Below, in pieces: positions 1-49,572 of a DNA stretch of 64,000 nt. The position numbers were made by a program, and so were the translations under genes. Location: positions 1 to 64,000 of the forward strand of contig DATBAK010000039.1 in NCBI GenBank assembly GCA_036271555.1, given 5' to 3'. How positions within the stretch are numbered: the first letter of the stretch is position 1; every line of letters starts with the position of its first letter. Below the pieces are notes generated by a model. The model saw nothing but the letters and a program-made list of their open reading frames with translations. It ran no database searches and had not been told where the DNA came from. Origin of the DNA: Acidimicrobiia bacterium (GTDB taxonomy: Bacteria; Actinomycetota; Acidimicrobiia; IMCC26256; PALSA-610).

Positions 1-222
1 CGTCCTCGCTCGTCTCGGCACGGGACTCCGACCGCAGCTCGCGGCACCCACTCACCCGCTCCGCTCCGATGGTCGCGTCCTCGCTCGTCTCGGCACGGGA
101 CTCCGACCGCAGCTCGCGGCACCCACTCACCCGCTCCGCTCCGATGGTCGCGTCCTCGCTCGTCTCGGCACGGGTCTCCGACCGCAGTCGCGGCACCCAC
201 TCACCCGCTCCGCTCGGTCCGG
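1..222. repeat. 75-bp tandem repeat, nearly three copies
   Basis: Copies begin at positions 1, 76 and 151 with a period of exactly 75 bases. The first two are identical over their visible length; the third has a few substitutions and a short deletion and decays at about 222. The left side is cut by the window edge, so the array may be longer. The period is a multiple of three and one frame stays open, but the resulting Ser/Arg/Pro-rich translation looks like a shadow and not a gene. Read on the minus strand, the unit has the same landmarks (GAGCGGAGCG, then a CCCGT block, then GCGACCAT) as the dispersed GC-rich repeats elsewhere in the window. It lies just upstream of the gene at 239. Confidence 0.85.
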
Positions 223-238
223 CAGGTCGTTTGCCAGA

Positions 239-25089: not shown

Positions 25090-25194
25090 GGGCGAGCGGA
25101 GCGAGCACACGATCTCACTCCCTCCCATGCGGCGTCCCGGAGCGGCGAGCGACCGCGGGCCGGGTATCCCGGACCCGCAGCGAGCGCGACCATG
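25090..25194 (+). repeat. Dispersed GC-rich repeat
   Basis: The copy starts with GGCGAGCGGAGCGAGC, continues through an ACTCCCTCCC block and CCCGGAGCGGCGAGCG, then the inverted pair GGGCCGGGTATCCCGGACCC, and ends CAGCGAGCGCGACCATGAGC. An ATG inside the last block opens only a 14-codon frame, so it is not counted as a gene. The next real start is at 25248. Confidence 0.65.
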
Positions 25195-25247: not shown

Positions 25248-26384
25248 GTGCGCCTGTTGCTCGACGTCTCCGCGGTTCCCGACCGGCCGGTCGGCGCCGG
25301 CTACTACACGCTGAACCTCGCGGCGCACCTCGCCGAGCGGGACGACATCGAGCTCCACCTGCTCTGCCGTCAGCGCGACTCCACGCGCTGGGAGCAGCTC
25401 GCGCCGCGCGCTCGAGTGCTCGCGGAAGTGCCCGCGGGACGGCCCGCGCGACTCGTGTGGGAGCAGGCGCGCGCGGCGGCGCTCGCACGCGGTCTGTGCA
25501 TCGACGTGTGGCACGGACCGCACTACACGATGCCGCTGCGCGTTGCGGTCCCCACGGTCGTCACCGTGCACGACCTCACGTTCTTCGAGCACCCGGAGTG
25601 GCACGAGCGCGGCAAGGTCGCGTTCTTCCGACCGATGATCCGCGCCGCGGTGCACCGGGCCGCGGTCGTCGTCGCGGTGAGCGACGACACCCGCGAGCGC
25701 CTGCGCCGCGTCGCGCTGCCGACCGGGCCGATCGTCGTCGCGCCGCACGGGGTCGACCATGAGCGCTTCAACGACGCCGTGCGCCCGACCGACGACGCCG
25801 TCCTCGCCACGCACGGCATCCGTGCGCCGTACATCGCGTTCACCGGCACGATCGAGCCCCGCAAGGGGTTGCCGAACCTCGTCGAGGCGTTCGCCGGTGT
25901 CGCTCGCGAGCACCCGAAGCTGCGGCTCGTGATCGCGGGCGCCGACGGCTGGGGATCCGACCAGGTCCGCGCCGCGATCGCGGCCAGTGGCGTGTCGACG
26001 CGCGTCTTCCGGCCCGGGTACCTGCCCGACGACGCGATCGCGCCGTTCTTCCGACGCGCCGCGGTCGTCGCGTACCCCTCGCTCGCGGAGGGCTTCGGCC
26101 TCAACGCGCTCGAAGCGCTCGCGTGCGGCGCGCCGCTCGTGACGACGACCGGCTCCGCGCTCGACGAGGTCGTCGGCGACGCTGCGCTCGCGGTCACGCC
26201 CGGCGACGTCGACTCGCTCGCGGGTGCGCTGCGTGACGCGTTGTGCCCCGAGACCGCGGCCCGTCTGCGCACCGCGGGTCCGGCGCGTGCAGCCGGCTTC
26301 ACGTGGGAGCGGTCGATCGAGCGTCACATGGAGGCGTACCGGCTCGCGCAGGCGTCGGCGTTCGTGACCCAGGCCGGAGCATGA
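25248..26384 (+). CDS. GT4 glycosyltransferase (EPRK type), third of three
   Basis: GTG 25248 gives 378 residues. Motifs are VRLLLDVSAVPDRPVGAGYY, YIAFTGTIEPRKGLPNLVEAF, and YPSLAEGFGLNALEALACGAPLV. TVHDLTFFEHPEW, a segment found in many EPRK mannosyltransferases, lies near residue 105. Related to the two genes before it, it probably adds another sugar of the same or a related type. A repeat with a built-in ribosome-binding site separates it from the reductase at 26494. Confidence 0.88.
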   Translation: MRLLLDVSAVPDRPVGAGYYTLNLAAHLAERDDIELHLLCRQRDSTRWEQLAPRARVLAEVPAGRPARLVWEQARAAALARGLCIDVWHGPHYTMPLRVAVPTVVTVHDLTFFEHPEWHERGKVAFFRPMIRAAVHRAAVVVAVSDDTRERLRRVALPTGPIVVAPHGVDHERFNDAVRPTDDAVLATHGIRAPYIAFTGTIEPRKGLPNLVEAFAGVAREHPKLRLVIAGADGWGSDQVRAAIAASGVSTRVFRPGYLPDDAIAPFFRRAAVVAYPSLAEGFGLNALEALACGAPLVTTTGSALDEVVGDAALAVTPGDVDSLAGALRDALCPETAARLRTAGPARAAGFTWERSIERHMEAYRLAQASAFVTQAGA

Positions 26385-26428
26385 CGTTGCGCTCGCTCCT
26401 TTCCGGCCGGTCCCACGCGACCGAAGGC

Positions 26429-26497
26429 GTCGAGGCTCGCCTCCGAGTGCGCGAGTCGGCGACCCGAAGGGGAGCCGGCGAAGGAACGAGCGCGTGA
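26429..26497 (+). repeat. Start-site repeat cassette, copy A
   Basis: About 69 bases nearly identical to 47687-47754 on the other strand; the block 26452-26485 matches copy B without change. It carries a purine-rich GAAGGAACGAG and runs into the start codon (GTGAGC) of the gene at 26494. Confidence 0.85.
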
Positions 26498-27393
26498 GCA
26501 AGGCGCTCGTCACCGGAGCGAGCGGGTTCGTCGGTCGCCATCTCATCGCGCACCTCGAGGCCGAGGGCGACGACGCCGTCGGCCTCGACCGCGACGACGG
26601 CCTCGACATCACCGATCCGCAGAGCGCGATCGAGCACTGCGAACGGCACCGGCCCGAGGTCGTGTACCACCTCGCGGCGCTGAGCCACGTCGGCGAGTCG
26701 TGGGGCGCGGCGCAGCTCGTGATGACGACGAACGTGATCGGCACGCTCAACGTGCTCGACGCCGCGCGCCGCGCCGGCGCAACGCGTGTGCTCGTCGTCG
26801 GCAGCGCCGAGGAGTACGGACGCGTGCGTGCGACCGCGCCGATCACCGAGGAGGAGCCGCTCAATCCGGTCTCGCCCTACGGCGCGAGCAAGGTCGCGGC
26901 CGGATACATCGCGCTCCAGGCGTTCCTCGGCAGCGGGCTCGAGACGGTCCGCGTGCGCGCGTTCAACCACACCGGTCCCGGCCAGCCGCCGCGGTTCTTC
27001 GTGCCCGCGCTCGCGCACCGCATCGCGCAGGCGGAACGCGAGGGTGTCGATACGGTCGCGGTCGGCAACCTCGACGCGATCCGCGAGGTCAACGACGTGC
27101 GCGACATCGTGCGCGCGTATCGCTCGCTGATGACGAGCGGTGAGCCGGGCGAGGTCTACAACGTCGGTAGTGGAATCGGTTTCACGATGCGCGAGGTCGC
27201 AGACCGCATGCTCGGGATGTCGACGCGCGCGATCGAGACGCGCACCGATCCCGCGCTCGCGCGTCCCGCCGACGTGCCGATGCTCGTCGCCGACGTCACG
27301 CGCCTGGTCGCCGCGACCGGGTGGCAGCCGACGCGCACGATCGACGACACCGTGGCCGACGTCCTCGCCGCGGCCCGCGCCGAAGCCGGCTGA
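26494..27393 (+). CDS. rmd: NAD(P)-dependent reductase, GDP-6-deoxy-mannose reductase (Rmd)-like
   Basis: A 299-residue extended SDR. The dinucleotide motif is TGASGFVG (7-14), the catalytic pair is Y129/K133 in SPYGASK, and NHTGPGQPPRFFVPALAHRIA is characteristic of the GDP-mannose 4,6-dehydratase/Rmd branch, as is GNLDAIREVNDVRDIVRAY. Rmd reduces GDP-4-keto-6-deoxymannose to GDP-D-rhamnose; the related GDP-fucose or GDP-talose enzymes cannot be excluded. No partner dehydratase (Gmd) lies in the window. It follows three EPRK glycosyltransferases that could use its product. The start GTG and its AAGGAA ribosome-binding region belong to a repeat shared with an unrelated gene. Confidence 0.78.
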   Translation: MSKALVTGASGFVGRHLIAHLEAEGDDAVGLDRDDGLDITDPQSAIEHCERHRPEVVYHLAALSHVGESWGAAQLVMTTNVIGTLNVLDAARRAGATRVLVVGSAEEYGRVRATAPITEEEPLNPVSPYGASKVAAGYIALQAFLGSGLETVRVRAFNHTGPGQPPRFFVPALAHRIAQAEREGVDTVAVGNLDAIREVNDVRDIVRAYRSLMTSGEPGEVYNVGSGIGFTMREVADRMLGMSTRAIETRTDPALARPADVPMLVADVTRLVAATGWQPTRTIDDTVADVLAAARAEAG

Positions 27394-27637: not shown

Positions 27638-29773
27638 TCACGCGATCGGCGCGGCCCAGAACGTCACGGTCTTCGAGACGTACTGCTCCGGCGCACGCGC
27701 GAGCGTGATCTCGATCTCGTGGATGCTGTCGGCCGCGCCGAGCTCCTCGGGTGGTCGAGCGAGACCGCGCACGCCGACCTCCGAGTCGCTGACGAGCCAG
27801 AGCCGGCGGCCCTGGCGCTGCCACGACCGCGCGAGCGCCTGCAGGACCGAGGCGTCGACGGGCGCGGCCAGACCGGCGACCGGCACGTTGCACCAGTCGC
27901 GCAGCGTCTGCGTGTAGACGGTGTGGACGTCGAGCGGCACGGTGAGGATCGCGGCGTTCGGCCCGACCCCGCGGCACAGAGCCTCGACGGCCGCGGGGAA
28001 GCCGTCCTCGATCGTGAGCGCGCGCACCGGGATCGCGCGGCCGAACGGGAAGCCGACGAGCGCGAGCACCGCGACGCCGGCGAACGCGGCGTGCCCGGCG
28101 CGCCGGTTCGCGATCCGCACGCCGTCCCATGCGCGCGCGAGACCGATCGCCGCGAGCAGCGCGCACAGCGGCAGCACCGCGGGCACGAAGCGTCGCATCG
28201 CCCACGGTTGGTCGCCGTTCACGTGCGGGCTCCACAGGTATTCGGCCGACAGTGAGCCCGCGATCAGCAGCGGCACCGCGATCGCGGGCGTCGGCTCACG
28301 GATGAGCCGGGCCAGCACGAACGCGAGCCCGACGATCGCGAGCAGCAGCGCGATCGGTCCGAGGTACCACGACAGCCATTCGACCGAGCGCTCGCCGTAG
28401 GTGCGCAGCCCGTCGATCAGCAGCCCTTCCTGCCGCTGGAGCTGCGTGTTGATGTCGATGTAGGGGGCGGAGCTCGGGCCCGACGGCCAGCGCAGCTTCT
28501 GCACCGCCGGTCGCACGGCCCACGCGAGCGTGAGGCCGACGACCGCGACCCCGACGACGACGTTCGCCACGCGCGCGCGTTCACGCGCGACGAGCTCGCG
28601 CAGCGCGCCGCTGCGCGGCCAGACCGCGACGAGCACGAGTCCGACGACCGCCATCGCCGCGCACGCGGCCCACAGCGACAGCACGTCGTGTCGCAGCGCG
28701 GCGTAATAGCCGGCGGAGCGCCGCTGCACGTCGAGCGTCCCGAGTGCGACGGGCGGCACGATGCCGACGAGCACGGCCGCGTACATCGGCAGGAGCTGCC
28801 GCCGTTTCGCATCATCGGCGCGCGAGATCCAACCGACGGCCGCGAGCAGCGGGACGAAGACGAGATACGCGACGCCGTCGATGCGCGTCATCACGGTCGC
28901 GCCGAGCGCGGCACCGCCCAACAGCGCGACACCGAGATGCCGTCGCTGCACCCGGCCCTGTGCCTCGAACGCGATCACCACGAGCAGGATCCCGCTCCAG
29001 AGCACGAACTGCGTCGACGGCTCGGAGAACGAGTCGCGCACCGTGTACAGCTCCGGGATCGTGATCCCGAGACCGAGCACCGCGGCGACGACCAGCCACG
29101 GCCGCGAGCAGCACCGGCAGCCGACCGCGAACAACGCGAGCAGGCCGGCCGCGCCCAGGAGCACGTTGGTGCGGAACATCAGCCCGTCGCCGCCGATGTT
29201 CTGCGCCTCCGCGAGCAGCGACGGCAGGAAGTGCGCGAACTGGAACTGCACCGTGCGACCGGGCGCGTCGTACGTGCCGCCCGAATGAAGGAGCACCTGC
29301 GACACGTTCGCGGGCCAGCCCGCGCCGGCGGGCACCACGAGGTTGCCGTGCTTCGCGATCCACTTCCCCGCGAGCGCGTAGATGCCCGGATCGCGATCGC
29401 CGGCCACGTGATGGCCCGCGTAGACCGCGTTCCACAGCGCGACCGCGCCCGCGCCCAACACCATAGCGATCGCGGGTTTCGGCGACACCCGCGCGCGATC
29501 GACGGGCCGCTCGCGCACGACCGCGATGACGACGCCGAGCAGCGTGCCGATCGATCCGAGGATCGCGGCGCGCGCGAGCGTGTAGTCGCCGCGGTACGCG
29601 AGCAGCTCCCCCGCACCGCCCCACGCAACGACCGTCGCGCACCCGACGATCAACGACTGCTCGAACCACCACGGCGCGCGATTCGCGGTCGTGGTCGCGC
29701 TCGCCGCTCCGTGACGCGGGACTGGAGTCGACGAAATCGCTCGCTCGCTCCGCTCGCCGCTCGTGCCACTCAT
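27638..29773 (-). CDS. GT-C type membrane protein, tandem paralogue 1
   Basis: A 711-residue multipass protein with about 12-13 helices and a soluble C-terminal domain of about 130 residues. It is a clear tandem duplicate of the gene at 29789-31912: both share GNLVVPAGAGWPANVS, QFQFAHFLPxLLAEAQNIGG and FSEPSTQFVLW in the outer loop after helix 4. The layout fits GT-C enzymes using polyprenyl-phosphate sugars, with DRDPGIYALAGKWI as a possible acidic site. The N-terminal SGTSGERSERAISS is encoded by a dispersed repeat running into the gene. The sugar is unknown. The gap to its paralogue is 15 bases. Confidence 0.8.
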   Translation of the reverse strand: MSGTSGERSERAISSTPVPRHGAASATTTANRAPWWFEQSLIVGCATVVAWGGAGELLAYRGDYTLARAAILGSIGTLLGVVIAVVRERPVDRARVSPKPAIAMVLGAGAVALWNAVYAGHHVAGDRDPGIYALAGKWIAKHGNLVVPAGAGWPANVSQVLLHSGGTYDAPGRTVQFQFAHFLPSLLAEAQNIGGDGLMFRTNVLLGAAGLLALFAVGCRCCSRPWLVVAAVLGLGITIPELYTVRDSFSEPSTQFVLWSGILLVVIAFEAQGRVQRRHLGVALLGGAALGATVMTRIDGVAYLVFVPLLAAVGWISRADDAKRRQLLPMYAAVLVGIVPPVALGTLDVQRRSAGYYAALRHDVLSLWAACAAMAVVGLVLVAVWPRSGALRELVARERARVANVVVGVAVVGLTLAWAVRPAVQKLRWPSGPSSAPYIDINTQLQRQEGLLIDGLRTYGERSVEWLSWYLGPIALLLAIVGLAFVLARLIREPTPAIAVPLLIAGSLSAEYLWSPHVNGDQPWAMRRFVPAVLPLCALLAAIGLARAWDGVRIANRRAGHAAFAGVAVLALVGFPFGRAIPVRALTIEDGFPAAVEALCRGVGPNAAILTVPLDVHTVYTQTLRDWCNVPVAGLAAPVDASVLQALARSWQRQGRRLWLVSDSEVGVRGLARPPEELGAADSIHEIEITLARAPEQYVSKTVTFWAAPIA
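29695..29770 (-). repeat. Dispersed GC-rich repeat inside a gene start
   Basis: On the minus strand this reads GCGGCGAGCGGAGCGAGCGA, then an ACTCCAGTCCCGCGTCACGG block, then AGCGGCGAGCGCGACC, matching 49266-49350 closely. It encodes residues 2-27 of the membrane protein starting at 29773, so a repeat has been taken into the reading frame. Confidence 0.65.
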
Positions 29774-29788
29774 GCGCTCATCGCACGA

Positions 29789-31912
29789 TCAGACCGGCGC
29801 GCCCCAGAAATCGACCGACTTCGGCACGTACTCACCGGGCGGCCGCTCGAGCGTCATCTCCACCTCGTGGTACGACCACGCGGTCGCGACGTGCACGGGC
29901 GCCGCCGACGGCAGTGCACCGCGCACGTCGTTCGGTGTGTTTCCGAGGATCCAGAGCCGCCGGCCCTGCGCCTTCCAACGCTGCGCGATCGTCTGCAGCG
30001 TGGCGGGGTCGATCGCGGCGTCGAGCCCCGCGACCGGGATCTCGCACCAGTCGCGCAGACTCTGCGTGTACACCGTGCCGAGCGGCGGTGGAATCGCAAG
30101 GATCGCCGCCTTCGGTCCCACCGTCGCGCAGATCCTGCGGATCGCAGCCGAATAGTTCGCGTCGGTGCTGAGATCGCGAACGGGGATGGTCCGCCCGAAG
30201 GGGAAGGCGACGAGCGCGAGCGCGCCGACGGCGGCCACCGTGCCGATCGGGAACGTCGGCCGCGCGGCGCTCACGGCGTCGCAGAGGATCCCGAGGCCGA
30301 ATGCGGCGAGCAGCGCGCACAGCGGCAGCACCGACGGGATGAACCGCCGCATCGCCCACGGCTGGTCACCGTTCACGTGGGGGTTCCACAGGTACTCCGC
30401 CGCGAGCGAGCCCGCGATCAGCAGCACGACCGCGCTGCTCGGCGTCGGCACGCTGATCACGCGGCTGATCAGGAAGCCGAGCCCGACGATCGCGAGCACG
30501 AGCGCGATCGGTCCGAGATACCACGACAACCACACGACCGAGTGCTCGCCGTACGTGCGCAGTCCGCTGATCGCGAGCCCCTCGCGCTTCTGCAGCACGG
30601 TGTTGAAGTTGATGTACGGCTGCGAGCTCGGACCCGCCGGCCACTTCAGCTTCTGGAGGTACGGCCGCACCGACCACGCGAGAACCATCCCGATCACCGC
30701 GACCCATCCCGCGACCGACGCGCCGAGCGAGCGGCGTTCGAGCATCCACGTGCGGATGCCACCGAGCCGCGGCCACACGACGAGGACCACGACCGACACG
30801 ACGGTCATCGCCGCGCACGCGGCGTACAGCGACATCACGTTGTGATGCAGGTCGTGGTAATAGCTGCCCGCGTGCCGCTGCACGTCGATCGTGCCGATCG
30901 CGATCGTGGGGATCGCGCCGACCGCGATCGCGGCGTAGGTCACGAGCAGCTGATGGCGCTCGGAACCGCGTCGCGCGAACCAGCCGACGACCGCGAGCAG
31001 CGGTACGAACGTGAAGTACGCGACACCGTCGATGCGCGTGAGGATCGCGGCGCCGAGCGCCGCGCCGCCGAGCACCGCGACACCGAGGTGCCGCCAACCG
31101 GATCGCGCTTCGATCGCGATCGCGATGAGCCAGATACCGGTCCAGAGCACGAACTGCGTCGACGGTTCCGAGAACGTGTCGCGCACGCAGTTGATCTCGG
31201 GGATCGAGACGCCCAACCCGATCACCGCGGCGACGACGAGCCACGGCCGTCGACAGAGGCGACACCCGACCGCGTACAGCACGAGCAACGCGGCCGCGCC
31301 GAGCAACGCGTTCGTGCGGAACATCAGGCCGTCGCCACCGATGTTCTGCGCCTCCGCGAGCAACGCGGGCAGGAAGTGCGCGAACTGGAACTGCACCGTG
31401 CGACCGGCCTCGTTGTACGTACCGCCCGAGTTGAGGACGAGGTGCGAGACGTTCGCGGGCCAGCCCGCGCCCGCGGGCACGACGAGGTTGCCGTGCTCGG
31501 CGATCCACTTGCCCGCCTGCGTGTAGATGCCGGGATCGCGGTCGCCGAGGATGTGATGCCCCGCGTGCGCGGCGTTCCAGAGGCCGACCGCGCCCGCGCC
31601 GAGCACCATCGCGATCGCGGACCGCGACGACGGCTCCACCCGGTCGACCGGGCGCGTGCGCATCGCCGCGAACCCGATCGCCAACACCGTGCCGATCGAG
31701 CCGAGGATCGCGGCCCGCCAGAGCCGGTACTCGCCGTTGTCGGCGAGGAACACGCCCGCGGCGCCCCAGGCGACCACCGTCGCGCAGACCACGATCAGGG
31801 CCTGCTCGAACCACCAGGGCGCGGCGCCGACGGTCGCGCCCGCGGCTCCGGCACGCGGGGTGGGACCGGGCGAGGTCGCTCGCTCGCTTCGCTCGTCGCT
31901 CGTGACGCTCAC
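29789..31912 (-). CDS. GT-C type membrane protein, tandem paralogue 2
   Basis: A 707-residue multipass protein, the duplicate of 27638-29773 with the same order of helices and loops. DRDPGIYTQAGKWIAEHGNL in the outer loop holds conserved acidic residues, as expected of a GT-C active site. Its N-terminus SVTSDERSERATSPGPTPRAGAA again reads through a degenerate copy of the dispersed repeat. GTG at 31912 follows a TAGCCT hexamer by nine bases, so the mRNA may be leaderless. The gene is divergent from the sulfoquinovose synthase and may act in the same pathway. Confidence 0.8.
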   Translation of the reverse strand: MSVTSDERSERATSPGPTPRAGAAGATVGAAPWWFEQALIVVCATVVAWGAAGVFLADNGEYRLWRAAILGSIGTVLAIGFAAMRTRPVDRVEPSSRSAIAMVLGAGAVGLWNAAHAGHHILGDRDPGIYTQAGKWIAEHGNLVVPAGAGWPANVSHLVLNSGGTYNEAGRTVQFQFAHFLPALLAEAQNIGGDGLMFRTNALLGAAALLVLYAVGCRLCRRPWLVVAAVIGLGVSIPEINCVRDTFSEPSTQFVLWTGIWLIAIAIEARSGWRHLGVAVLGGAALGAAILTRIDGVAYFTFVPLLAVVGWFARRGSERHQLLVTYAAIAVGAIPTIAIGTIDVQRHAGSYYHDLHHNVMSLYAACAAMTVVSVVVLVVWPRLGGIRTWMLERRSLGASVAGWVAVIGMVLAWSVRPYLQKLKWPAGPSSQPYINFNTVLQKREGLAISGLRTYGEHSVVWLSWYLGPIALVLAIVGLGFLISRVISVPTPSSAVVLLIAGSLAAEYLWNPHVNGDQPWAMRRFIPSVLPLCALLAAFGLGILCDAVSAARPTFPIGTVAAVGALALVAFPFGRTIPVRDLSTDANYSAAIRRICATVGPKAAILAIPPPLGTVYTQSLRDWCEIPVAGLDAAIDPATLQTIAQRWKAQGRRLWILGNTPNDVRGALPSAAPVHVATAWSYHEVEMTLERPPGEYVPKSVDFWGAPV

Positions 31913-47179: not shown

Positions 47180-47689
47180 TTATCGGCCGGTTCGGCCGTC
47201 GAGCAGCTCGCGCGTGATGTCCATGTGCCCCGCATGACGCGCGAGCTCCTCGACGAGATGCGTGACGACCCAGCGCAGCGTCGTCGGCCGCGTCGGTCCG
47301 CGCGACGCCACGTCGAACGACGGCGCCGCGTCGAGCACCGCGTCGGCGGCCGCGGTCTCGAATCGATGGAACGCGACGACGTCGGCGACCGACCATCCGT
47401 CGGGCAACTCGAACATGTGCGCGCGCCACTTCATGTCCATCGCCTCGCCCGCGAAGATCGCGCGCAGCCACAGTCGTTCCGCGTAGCCGCAGTGCACCGC
47501 GATCGCGCCGAGCGAGTTCGCGGTCGGTGCGGGCCGCCACCGCAGCTGCGCGTCGTCGAGATCTTCGAGCTTGAAGAGGACGCTCGCGCGCAGGTGCACG
47601 AGCCACGCGCGCGCCATCGTCATCTCGCCGGCCGGGGTCGCCTCGTCCGGCCGCGGCACACTCATCTCCGGCGGCTTCTCGTGGCTCAT
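47180..47689 (-). CDS. DinB/DUF664 family protein
   Basis: A 169-residue four-helix protein of the DinB-like/DUF664 superfamily. Likely metal-binding histidines are in AIAVHCGYAERL and VVTHLVEELARHAGHMD. In actinobacteria these small metalloproteins include thiol-dependent transferases, but most are uncharacterised. A relative is at 62815-63291. The ATG and its AAGGAG ribosome-binding site lie within a repeat also found at 26429. Despite the family name, a DNA-damage role is not implied. Confidence 0.85.
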   Translation of the reverse strand: MSHEKPPEMSVPRPDEATPAGEMTMARAWLVHLRASVLFKLEDLDDAQLRWRPAPTANSLGAIAVHCGYAERLWLRAIFAGEAMDMKWRAHMFELPDGWSVADVVAFHRFETAAADAVLDAAPSFDVASRGPTRPTTLRWVVTHLVEELARHAGHMDITRELLDGRTGR

Positions 47690-47754
47690 GCGCTCGCTCC
47701 TTCGCCGGCTCCCCTTCGGGTCGCCGACTCGCACGCTCGCTGGCGAGCCTCGAC
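47687..47754 (-). repeat. Start-site repeat cassette, copy B
   Basis: On the minus strand this matches 26429-26497 almost throughout and includes AAGGAG seven bases before the ATG of the DinB gene. It is extended upstream (to about 47780) by the GAGCGGAGCGAGC block of the dispersed repeat. Confidence 0.85.
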
Positions 47755-47807
47755 GCTCGCTCCGCTCACGCCTTCGGCCGCGCGCGCGAGTCGATGCGCG
47801 CGTGCGA

Positions 47808-49250: not shown

Positions 49251-49265
49251 CCGCTGCGACCGTGG

Positions 49266-49350
49266 CTGAGCGCGCGAGCAGAGCGAGCGGCGCGGCCTCG
49301 CTCACTCCCGTCCCGCGTCACGGAGCGGCGAGCGCAGCGAGCGCGACCAG
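49266..49350 (+). repeat. Dispersed GC-rich repeat
   Basis: GAGCAGAGCGAGCGGCG, an ACTCCCGTCCCGCGTCACGG block, then AGCGGCGAGCGCAGCGAGCG and CGACCAG. It fills the gap between convergent genes. The central block matches 29695-29770 read on the opposite strand. Confidence 0.7.
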
Positions 49351-49572
49351 CTAGCGCGCAGCCTTCTTGATCGACGTGTGGGCGTGGTAGCCGCGGTTGC
49401 GGGCCTCGGCGAGCGTGTCGGGAGCGAACGCCGCGAACTGCTCCGACTGCACGAGCTCGTCGATCGCGGCCGCGACCTCCGGGTCGGAGTCGATGAGCTC
49501 CATGTCGTAGACGACCTGGCGGCGCTTGTCGCCGAGGTAACGGGATTCCTCGAAGGCACGCGGTCGGGTCAC
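49351..49572 (-). CDS. Small conserved-looking hypothetical protein
   Basis: GTG 49572 gives 73 residues, with a TATCGT hexamer eight bases upstream supporting it over a longer frame from 49662. The protein is acidic in the middle (MELIDSDPEVAAAIDELVQSE) and basic at the end (HTSIKKAAR), with no membrane segment or cysteine. I do not recognise a family. It is divergent from the homogentisate dioxygenase gene. Confidence 0.6.
   Translation of the reverse strand: MTRPRAFEESRYLGDKRRQVVYDMELIDSDPEVAAAIDELVQSEQFAAFAPDTLAEARNRGYHAHTSIKKAAR

What the first reader, a model, noticed from the sequence alone, without database searches (positions are those of the whole stretch)
26429..26497. Portable ribosome-binding site: a repeat that supplies start codons to unrelated genes
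About 69 bases upstream of and including the start codon of the Rmd-like gene match those of the DinB gene at 47687-47754 on the other strand, with a 34-base block identical. The repeat carries AAGGAG or AAGGAA and the ATG/GTG AGC start. The genes themselves are unrelated, so the start region has been copied as a unit.
Basis: seen in the sequence. Interest (0 to 1): 0.6.

Follow-up and report, generated by a model that had tools for sequence, protein, structure and literature searches.

The report
MIRU-like mobile repeats capping gene starts
The matching start regions are two of about 40 copies of a small, apparently mobile DNA repeat that wedges itself between bacterial genes and brings its own ribosome-binding site and often the start codon, so the neighbouring genes can still be translated.

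Summary
The two sites (73 nt, 92% identical, 34 nt exact) are copies of a ~100-nt interspersed repeat with about 40 copies in this 4.7-Mb uncultured Acidimicrobiia genome, next to unrelated genes. In 14 of 36 well-placed copies the repeat ends exactly at a start codon, and in 19 within 7 nt of one (3% expected). Four end 2-5 nt from an antisense stop codon. Relatives in the same order carry a sister family with the same ends but another hairpin; both hairpins covary. Orthologous junctions (phoH-ybeY, gltB-gltD, atpA-atpG) are short or overlapping in many relatives, so the repeats are insertions. Among start-abutting copies with a co-directional upstream gene, 13/15 follow a DTGA stop (44% expected) and 13/15 keep one frame open from that stop to the downstream start (1/3 expected). 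This is the architecture of mycobacterial MIRUs, but the sequence is unrelated. I conclude it is a new, MIRU-like non-autonomous mobile repeat that survives by relaying translation and supplying a Shine-Dalgarno and often a start codon. The mobiliser is unknown; no RAYT transposase is present.

The parts
26414..26493 (+). Repeat copy A (CACGCG...GAACGAGCGC), with a 15-nt internal deletion relative to the consensus; ends directly before the GTG start of the Rmd-like gene
   Evidence: Alignment A1, nhmmer/CM matches, sequence
26455..26479 (+). Covarying hairpin of copy A: GTCGGC-GA-CCC-GAA-GGG-GA-GCCGGC
   Evidence: Fold and covariation
26481..26486 (+). Shine-Dalgarno-like AAGGAA carried by copy A, 7 nt before the start codon
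   Evidence: Sequence
26494..27393 (+). Downstream gene, Rmd-like NAD-dependent epimerase/GDP-mannose dehydratase family, GTG start at the repeat's end
   Evidence: Pfam PF16363/PF01370; start call robust without SD term
26381..26497 (+). Relay frame of copy A: ATG overlapping the upstream gene's stop (ATGA, 26381-26384) to the TGA overlapping the GTG start (GTGA, 26494-26497); 38 codons plus stop, inferred
25248..26384 (+). Upstream co-directional gene ending in ATGA
   Evidence: Gene finder
47691..47781 (-). Repeat copy B (GCGGCCGAAGG...GGAGCGAGCG), full length
   Evidence: nhmmer, CM, sequence
47704..47728 (-). Covarying hairpin of copy B
47697..47702 (-). Shine-Dalgarno AAGGAG carried by copy B
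   Evidence: Sequence
47180..47689 (-). Downstream gene, mycothiol-S-transferase/DinB family, ATG-AGC start at the repeat's end
   Evidence: Pfam PF04978/PF12867
47686..47811 (-). Relay frame of copy B: GTG of the upstream GTGA stop (47811-47808) to the TGA overlapping the ATG start; inferred

Best explanation
The site is a copy of a non-autonomous, probably mobile small interspersed repeat of about 100 nt, specific to one order of Acidimicrobiia. It has fixed ends (CACGCGGC...GAGCGAGCG-NATNAG), a left scaffold and a covarying hairpin. It inserts at gene borders, chiefly at junctions of co-directional genes whose upstream gene ends in DTGA (stop overlapping a start). The inferred mechanism: ribosomes ending the upstream gene re-initiate at the overlapping start, read a short relay frame through the repeat, and stop at a TGA overlapping the downstream start (ATGA); the repeat's own AAGGAG also recruits ribosomes there. 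The neighbouring gene therefore stays translated and the insertion is tolerated. Shown: copy number, covariation, start/stop abutment, empty sites in relatives, DTGA and frame bias. Inferred: mobility, re-initiation, and that the relay explains retention. Unknown: what moves it.
For: About 40 copies with common boundaries beside unrelated genes. Right end within 7 nt of a sense start in 19/36 (expected 3.1%, P~1e-19), left end near any border once; unchanged without an SD term. 22 copies with, 2 against, the direction of co-directional neighbours. Empty junctions in relatives at phoH-ybeY (4-nt DTGA overlap in ten genomes), gltB-gltD and atpA-atpG. Another repeat nested inside a copy (L032). 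DTGA 13/15 and relay frame 13/15 among start-abutting co-directional copies, both 11/15 (P 5e-7); repeat-free gaps show frames 17/16/16. Three +7 copies also end the frame on ATGA. Sister family in other genomes with the same ends and border abutment.
Against: No polymorphic insertion or target-site duplication was seen in this genome. The sister family keeps the relay frame in only 5 of 10 testable copies and follows DTGA in 4. The relay peptide shows no third-position excess and the Shine-Dalgarno is not clearly better kept in start-abutting copies. Some copies abut divergent starts or antisense stops, where a relay cannot matter. The +1 TGA is inherited with the repeat and is not independent evidence. 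The DTGA/frame test was formed after looking at the same copies.
Confidence: 0.68

Rival explanations
1. A cis-regulatory RNA leader (riboswitch-like or protein-binding 5'-UTR element) controls a regulon of about 40 genes, and the hairpin next to the Shine-Dalgarno gates translation.
For: Covarying hairpin just upstream of the Shine-Dalgarno; 32 of 36 copies have a sense gene to the right.
Against: Downstream genes share no function. Four copies abut antisense stops, and about nine sister copies do. Most relatives lack it at the same genes. Tandem, nested and reverse copies occur. No Rfam family.
Confidence: 0.12
2. A plain selfish repeat (MITE-like) inserts near gene borders at random or by target preference, and only insertions that do not hurt remain; translation relay plays no part and the frame bias is chance or a by-product of the insertion target.
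For: Sister copies abut antisense stops as often as a mobile element would; no selection visible on peptide or SD; frame only 5/10 in the sister family.
Against: In G000 the frame is kept in 13/15 and DTGA present in 13/15, with a uniform frame in repeat-free gaps; strong orientation bias, 22 to 2.
Confidence: 0.14
3. REP-type repeat moved by a RAYT (Y1 tyrosine) transposase.
For: Palindromic core in many extragenic copies.
Against: No Y1_Tnp (PF01797) match in G000, G014, G041, G050, G055, G018, G011, G007 or G031, while the control genomes ring.
Confidence: 0.03
4. A simple duplication or rearrangement copied one start region to another gene.
For: The two window sites alone would fit this.
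Against: About 40 copies with common boundaries, unrelated flanks, both strands and many contigs, and sister families in other genomes.
Confidence: 0.03

Closest known systems
MIRU (mycobacterial interspersed repetitive units)
   Same: About 50-100 nt, tens of copies, oriented with the genes, at start codons/DTGA junctions, internal frame ending on ATGA (4-nt overlap) of the downstream gene, purine-rich Shine-Dalgarno near the right end. PMC12548453 calls MIRUs mobile, inserting at start codons with -4 coupling; a MIRU-like motif before a RegX3-like start was found here.
   Different: No sequence similarity (nhmmer E>0.6). It carries a covarying hairpin, its left end lies a variable 5-40 nt from the upstream stop rather than at it, some copies abut antisense stops, and it belongs to another class.
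Pneumococcal BOX, RUP and SPRITE repeats
   Same: Modular small interspersed repeats with hairpins, clustered and nested insertions, read as parasitic elements (PMC3049150).
   Different: Not tied to start codons; BOX-encoded reading frames lacked good Shine-Dalgarno sequences (PMC3049150).
REP sequences / REPINs with RAYT
   Same: Short extragenic hairpin repeat in many copies.
   Different: No Y1 transposase in the repeat-rich genomes; anchored at start codons; larger and oriented unit.
Rickettsia palindromic elements and bacterial MITEs
   Same: Small non-autonomous repeats that avoid harm by keeping reading frames (RPE, as reviewed in PMC10969869).
   Different: RPEs lie in frame inside genes; here the repeat lies between genes and keeps a relay frame. 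No clear terminal inverted repeats or target duplications.

Membership tests
MIRU | Sequence homology to mycobacterial MIRUs | tested here: not met
   Repeat profile against five MIRU-motif loci: best E 0.63; scaffold absent from a phylum sample outside G000
MIRU | Sits at start codons of unrelated genes, oriented with them | tested here: met
   19/36 within 7 nt of a sense start; 22 with versus 2 against co-directional genes
MIRU | Upstream gene ends in DTGA (translational-coupling site) | tested here: met
   13/15 start-abutting co-directional copies versus 44% of repeat-free pairs
MIRU | Internal frame linking upstream stop to a -4 overlap with the downstream start | tested here: met
   13/15 in frame, P 3e-5; but only 5/10 in the sister family
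MIRU | Left end placed exactly at the DTGA | tested here: not met
   Left distances mostly 5-40 nt, some above 100
REP/RAYT | Y1 (IS200-like) transposase in the genome | tested here: not met
   PF01797 absent from G000 and repeat-rich relatives; controls positive
MITE | Terminal inverted repeats and target-site duplication | tested here: inconclusive
   No consistent duplication in aligned G000 copies; ends only weakly complementary
cis-regulatory RNA (riboswitch/leader) | Covarying structure in the 5' leader | tested here: met
   0/500 shuffles reach the covariation score in either hairpin
cis-regulatory RNA (riboswitch/leader) | Kept upstream of orthologous, functionally coherent genes | tested here: not met
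   Unrelated genes; patchy at gltD, atpG and ybeY across the order

The most novel reading that the evidence does not exclude
A transposase-less class of mobile element directed to translation start/stop junctions themselves, for example by copying through mRNA or a translation-linked process. Its sequence is built as an interchangeable gene border: the end NATNAG becomes a sense start as ATGAG, or an antisense stop as ATCAG/ATTAG. It would have arisen independently of MIRUs.
Probability: 0.15. Interest if true: 0.75.

Novelty: new variant of a known kind. Interest (0 to 1): 0.55.

Why it matters
MIRUs have looked like a mycobacterial peculiarity. An unrelated repeat in another class with the same DTGA-to-ATGA relay frame suggests that inserting between coupled genes and relaying translation is a repeatable strategy for small selfish DNA. 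Because frame, DTGA and Shine-Dalgarno can be scored in many copies, it makes the old question of how such repeats stay harmless directly testable. It also warns gene callers about tiny relay frames and shifted starts.

Tried and rejected
Rfam at gathering threshold (window) and up to E 1 (nine loci): no family. REP/RAYT: no Y1 transposase in repeat-rich genomes. Plain BLAST of the repeat in 40 relatives: none; only the covariance model showed the sister family. Exact G000-type core in 84,980 species: none (own genome possibly masked). The scaffold pattern also hit Bradyrhizobium and Kiritimatiellae inside coding genes, and a Phycisphaerales contig with no resemblance outside the pattern; rejected as chance. 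Selection on the relay peptide: no third-position excess. Stronger Shine-Dalgarno in start-abutting copies: not clear, 14/19 vs 11/18. Frame-shifting indels rarer in start-abutting copies: trend only (3/16 vs 6/15, P 0.25). Target-site duplication in G000: none consistent. Homology to MIRU: none. No copies in viral contigs.

Full report
What was claimed and what is there. The two start regions match as described: a 34-nt identical block within a 73-nt ungapped match of 92%, each ending in a Shine-Dalgarno-like hexamer and a GTG/ATG-AGC start. The downstream genes are unrelated (PF16363/PF01370 versus PF04978/PF12867). The window is contig C39 of a 4.68-Mb, 104-contig genome. That genome holds about 40 copies. 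Aligning 31 of them gives the unit CACGCGGCCGAAGGCGCGAGCGGAGCGAGCGTCGAGGCTCGCCAGCGAGCGTGCGAGTCGGCGACCCGAAGGGGAGCCGGCGAAGGAGCGAGCG, followed by a variable end (C/A)-ATGAG, ATAAG, ATCAG, GACAG and so on.

Where the copies lie. A small codon-usage gene finder (92% coding in the window) was applied around every copy. In 36 well-placed copies the right end is exactly 1 nt before a sense start in 14 and within 7 nt in 19 (3.1% of intergenic sites expected, P~1e-19); within 25 nt in 25. Another four end 2-5 nt before the stop codon of an antisense gene. The left end lies within 7 nt of a gene border only once. Calling starts without any Shine-Dalgarno term changes nothing. In runs of co-directional genes 22 copies point with the genes and 2 against. 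Twenty proteins encoded next to the right ends fall in many unrelated Pfam families, including NDK, YbeY, ABC transporter, thiolases, carboxyltransferase and glycosyltransferase; four had no match.

Relatives. BLAST found no copy in 40 relatives, but a covariance model did. Genomes of the same order carry a sister family with the same left scaffold and right end GAGCGAGCG but another hairpin, GCG-nnnn-GGTATCC-nnnn-CGC. The scaffold pattern occurs in 9 of 395 genomes of the class, all in this order, and in no genome but G000 in a 396-genome sample of the phylum; the reversed-pattern control was zero in both. Named records are Acidimicrobiia/Actinomycetota MAGs, plus one Solirubrobacteraceae MAG with a copy-like sequence. 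In 35 sister copies the right end again abuts sense starts (about 14 within 10 nt) or antisense stops (about 9 within 5 nt).

Structure. The hairpins covary copy by copy. In the sister family 95% of cells pair, with 25 double changes against 8.2 in shuffles. In the G000 family 92% pair, with 6 of 9 pairs showing double changes against 1.6. None of 500 shuffles reaches the covariation score. The sequences are related, so this control is not a strict probability, but slid structures do far worse. Rfam has no match.

Insertion. Orthologous junctions show empty sites. phoH-ybeY overlaps by 4 nt at ATGA/GTGA in ten relatives; in G000 phoH still ends in GTGA, but 136 nt with the repeat now precede ybeY. 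gltB-gltD overlaps by 4-8 nt, or is spaced by a few nt as in G009, in many relatives; the repeat fills it in G000 and other repeats fill it in G011, G031 and G013. atpA-atpG is 2-7 nt in many relatives and carries repeats in G000, G050, G014, G029, G044 and G040. One G000 copy is interrupted by another repeat type in its hairpin loop (L032). These facts argue for repeated insertion rather than an inherited leader.

Translation relay. Reading back from the downstream start in the frame that ends at its overlapping TGA, the repeat is open in most copies, and the frame reaches the upstream gene's stop in register with that stop's own DTG. Among 15 start-abutting copies behind a co-directional gene, 13 have DTGA (repeat-free co-directional pairs: 44% overall, P 8e-4; 22% for gaps of 21-299 nt) and 13 keep the frame (1/3 expected, P 3e-5; repeat-free gaps 17/16/16); 11 have both (P 5e-7). 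In window copy A the frame runs 26381-26497 (MTLRSLLSGRSHATEGVEARLRVRESATRRGAGEGTSA); in copy B 47811-47686. Independent support comes from three copies whose start lies at +7 and whose frame also ends on ATGA (L008, L035, L075). The peptide itself is not conserved, so position and frame matter, not the product. Cautions: the +1 stop is part of the repeat and is not independent, the test was framed after seeing these copies, and the sister family shows the frame in only 5 of 10 testable copies.

Comparison. MIRUs are described as mobile, inserting at start codons, with an internal ORF coupled at -4 nt (PMC12548453). That they target DTGA sites I recalled from the original MIRU literature and did not read here. 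The architecture is the same but the sequence is unrelated. RAYT-type Y1 transposase is absent from repeat-rich genomes. A limited search of open-access papers found no description of this repeat.

Verdict. Mobility and re-initiation are inferred from comparison, not shown; the mobiliser is unknown.

Noticed in passing
window 25091-25191: A copy related to the GGTATCC-hairpin sister family lies in another intergenic gap of the same window (GACCGCGGGCCGGGTATCCCGGACCCGCAGCGAGCGCGACC-ATGAGC), so this genome holds more than one subfamily.
   Followed up: partly
window 29697-29790 and 49262-49352: A third, related repeat type: 32 nt at 97% complementarity (GCGCTCGCCGCTCCGTGACGCGGGACTGGAGT), again with GAGCGGCGAGCG / GCGAGCGCGACC blocks; the second copy ends just before CTAG, possibly an antisense stop.
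   Followed up: no
window 1-225: Three tandem copies of a 75-nt GC-rich unit at the contig edge, two of them identical; similar GAGCG/CGCTC content to the repeats.
   Followed up: no
L032 (G000 contig C85, about 122300-122471): One copy of the repeat is interrupted in its hairpin loop by a different GGGATACCC-bearing repeat in reverse orientation, a nested insertion.
   Followed up: partly
L262 (G044, phoH-ybeY junction): An unrelated ~76-nt insertion is flanked by a direct repeat AGGACACACGATGAG that includes the start codon: perhaps a target duplication that copies the start site.
   Followed up: no
L231 (JADGPN010000234.1, Solirubrobacteraceae MAG): A sequence with the same left end and scaffold (CCCACGCGGCGCAGGCGTGAGCG...CTCGCCAGCGAGCG...GAGCGAGCG) outside the order: horizontal spread or a binning error.
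   Followed up: no
L061 and L071 (G011): Near-identical repeat copies directly before a rpmG-like (MAKNEKRVKITL) and a rpsJ-like (MAGPSGQKIRI) start; in G041 a copy precedes an atpA-like start (L069). Essential, highly expressed genes tolerate the insertion (gene names from recognition, not from a search).
   Followed up: no
L220 (CAMDCC010000008.1): Record titled Bifidobacterium breve MAG carries the Acidimicrobiia repeat at the same coordinates as genome G055; the record name looks wrong.
   Followed up: no
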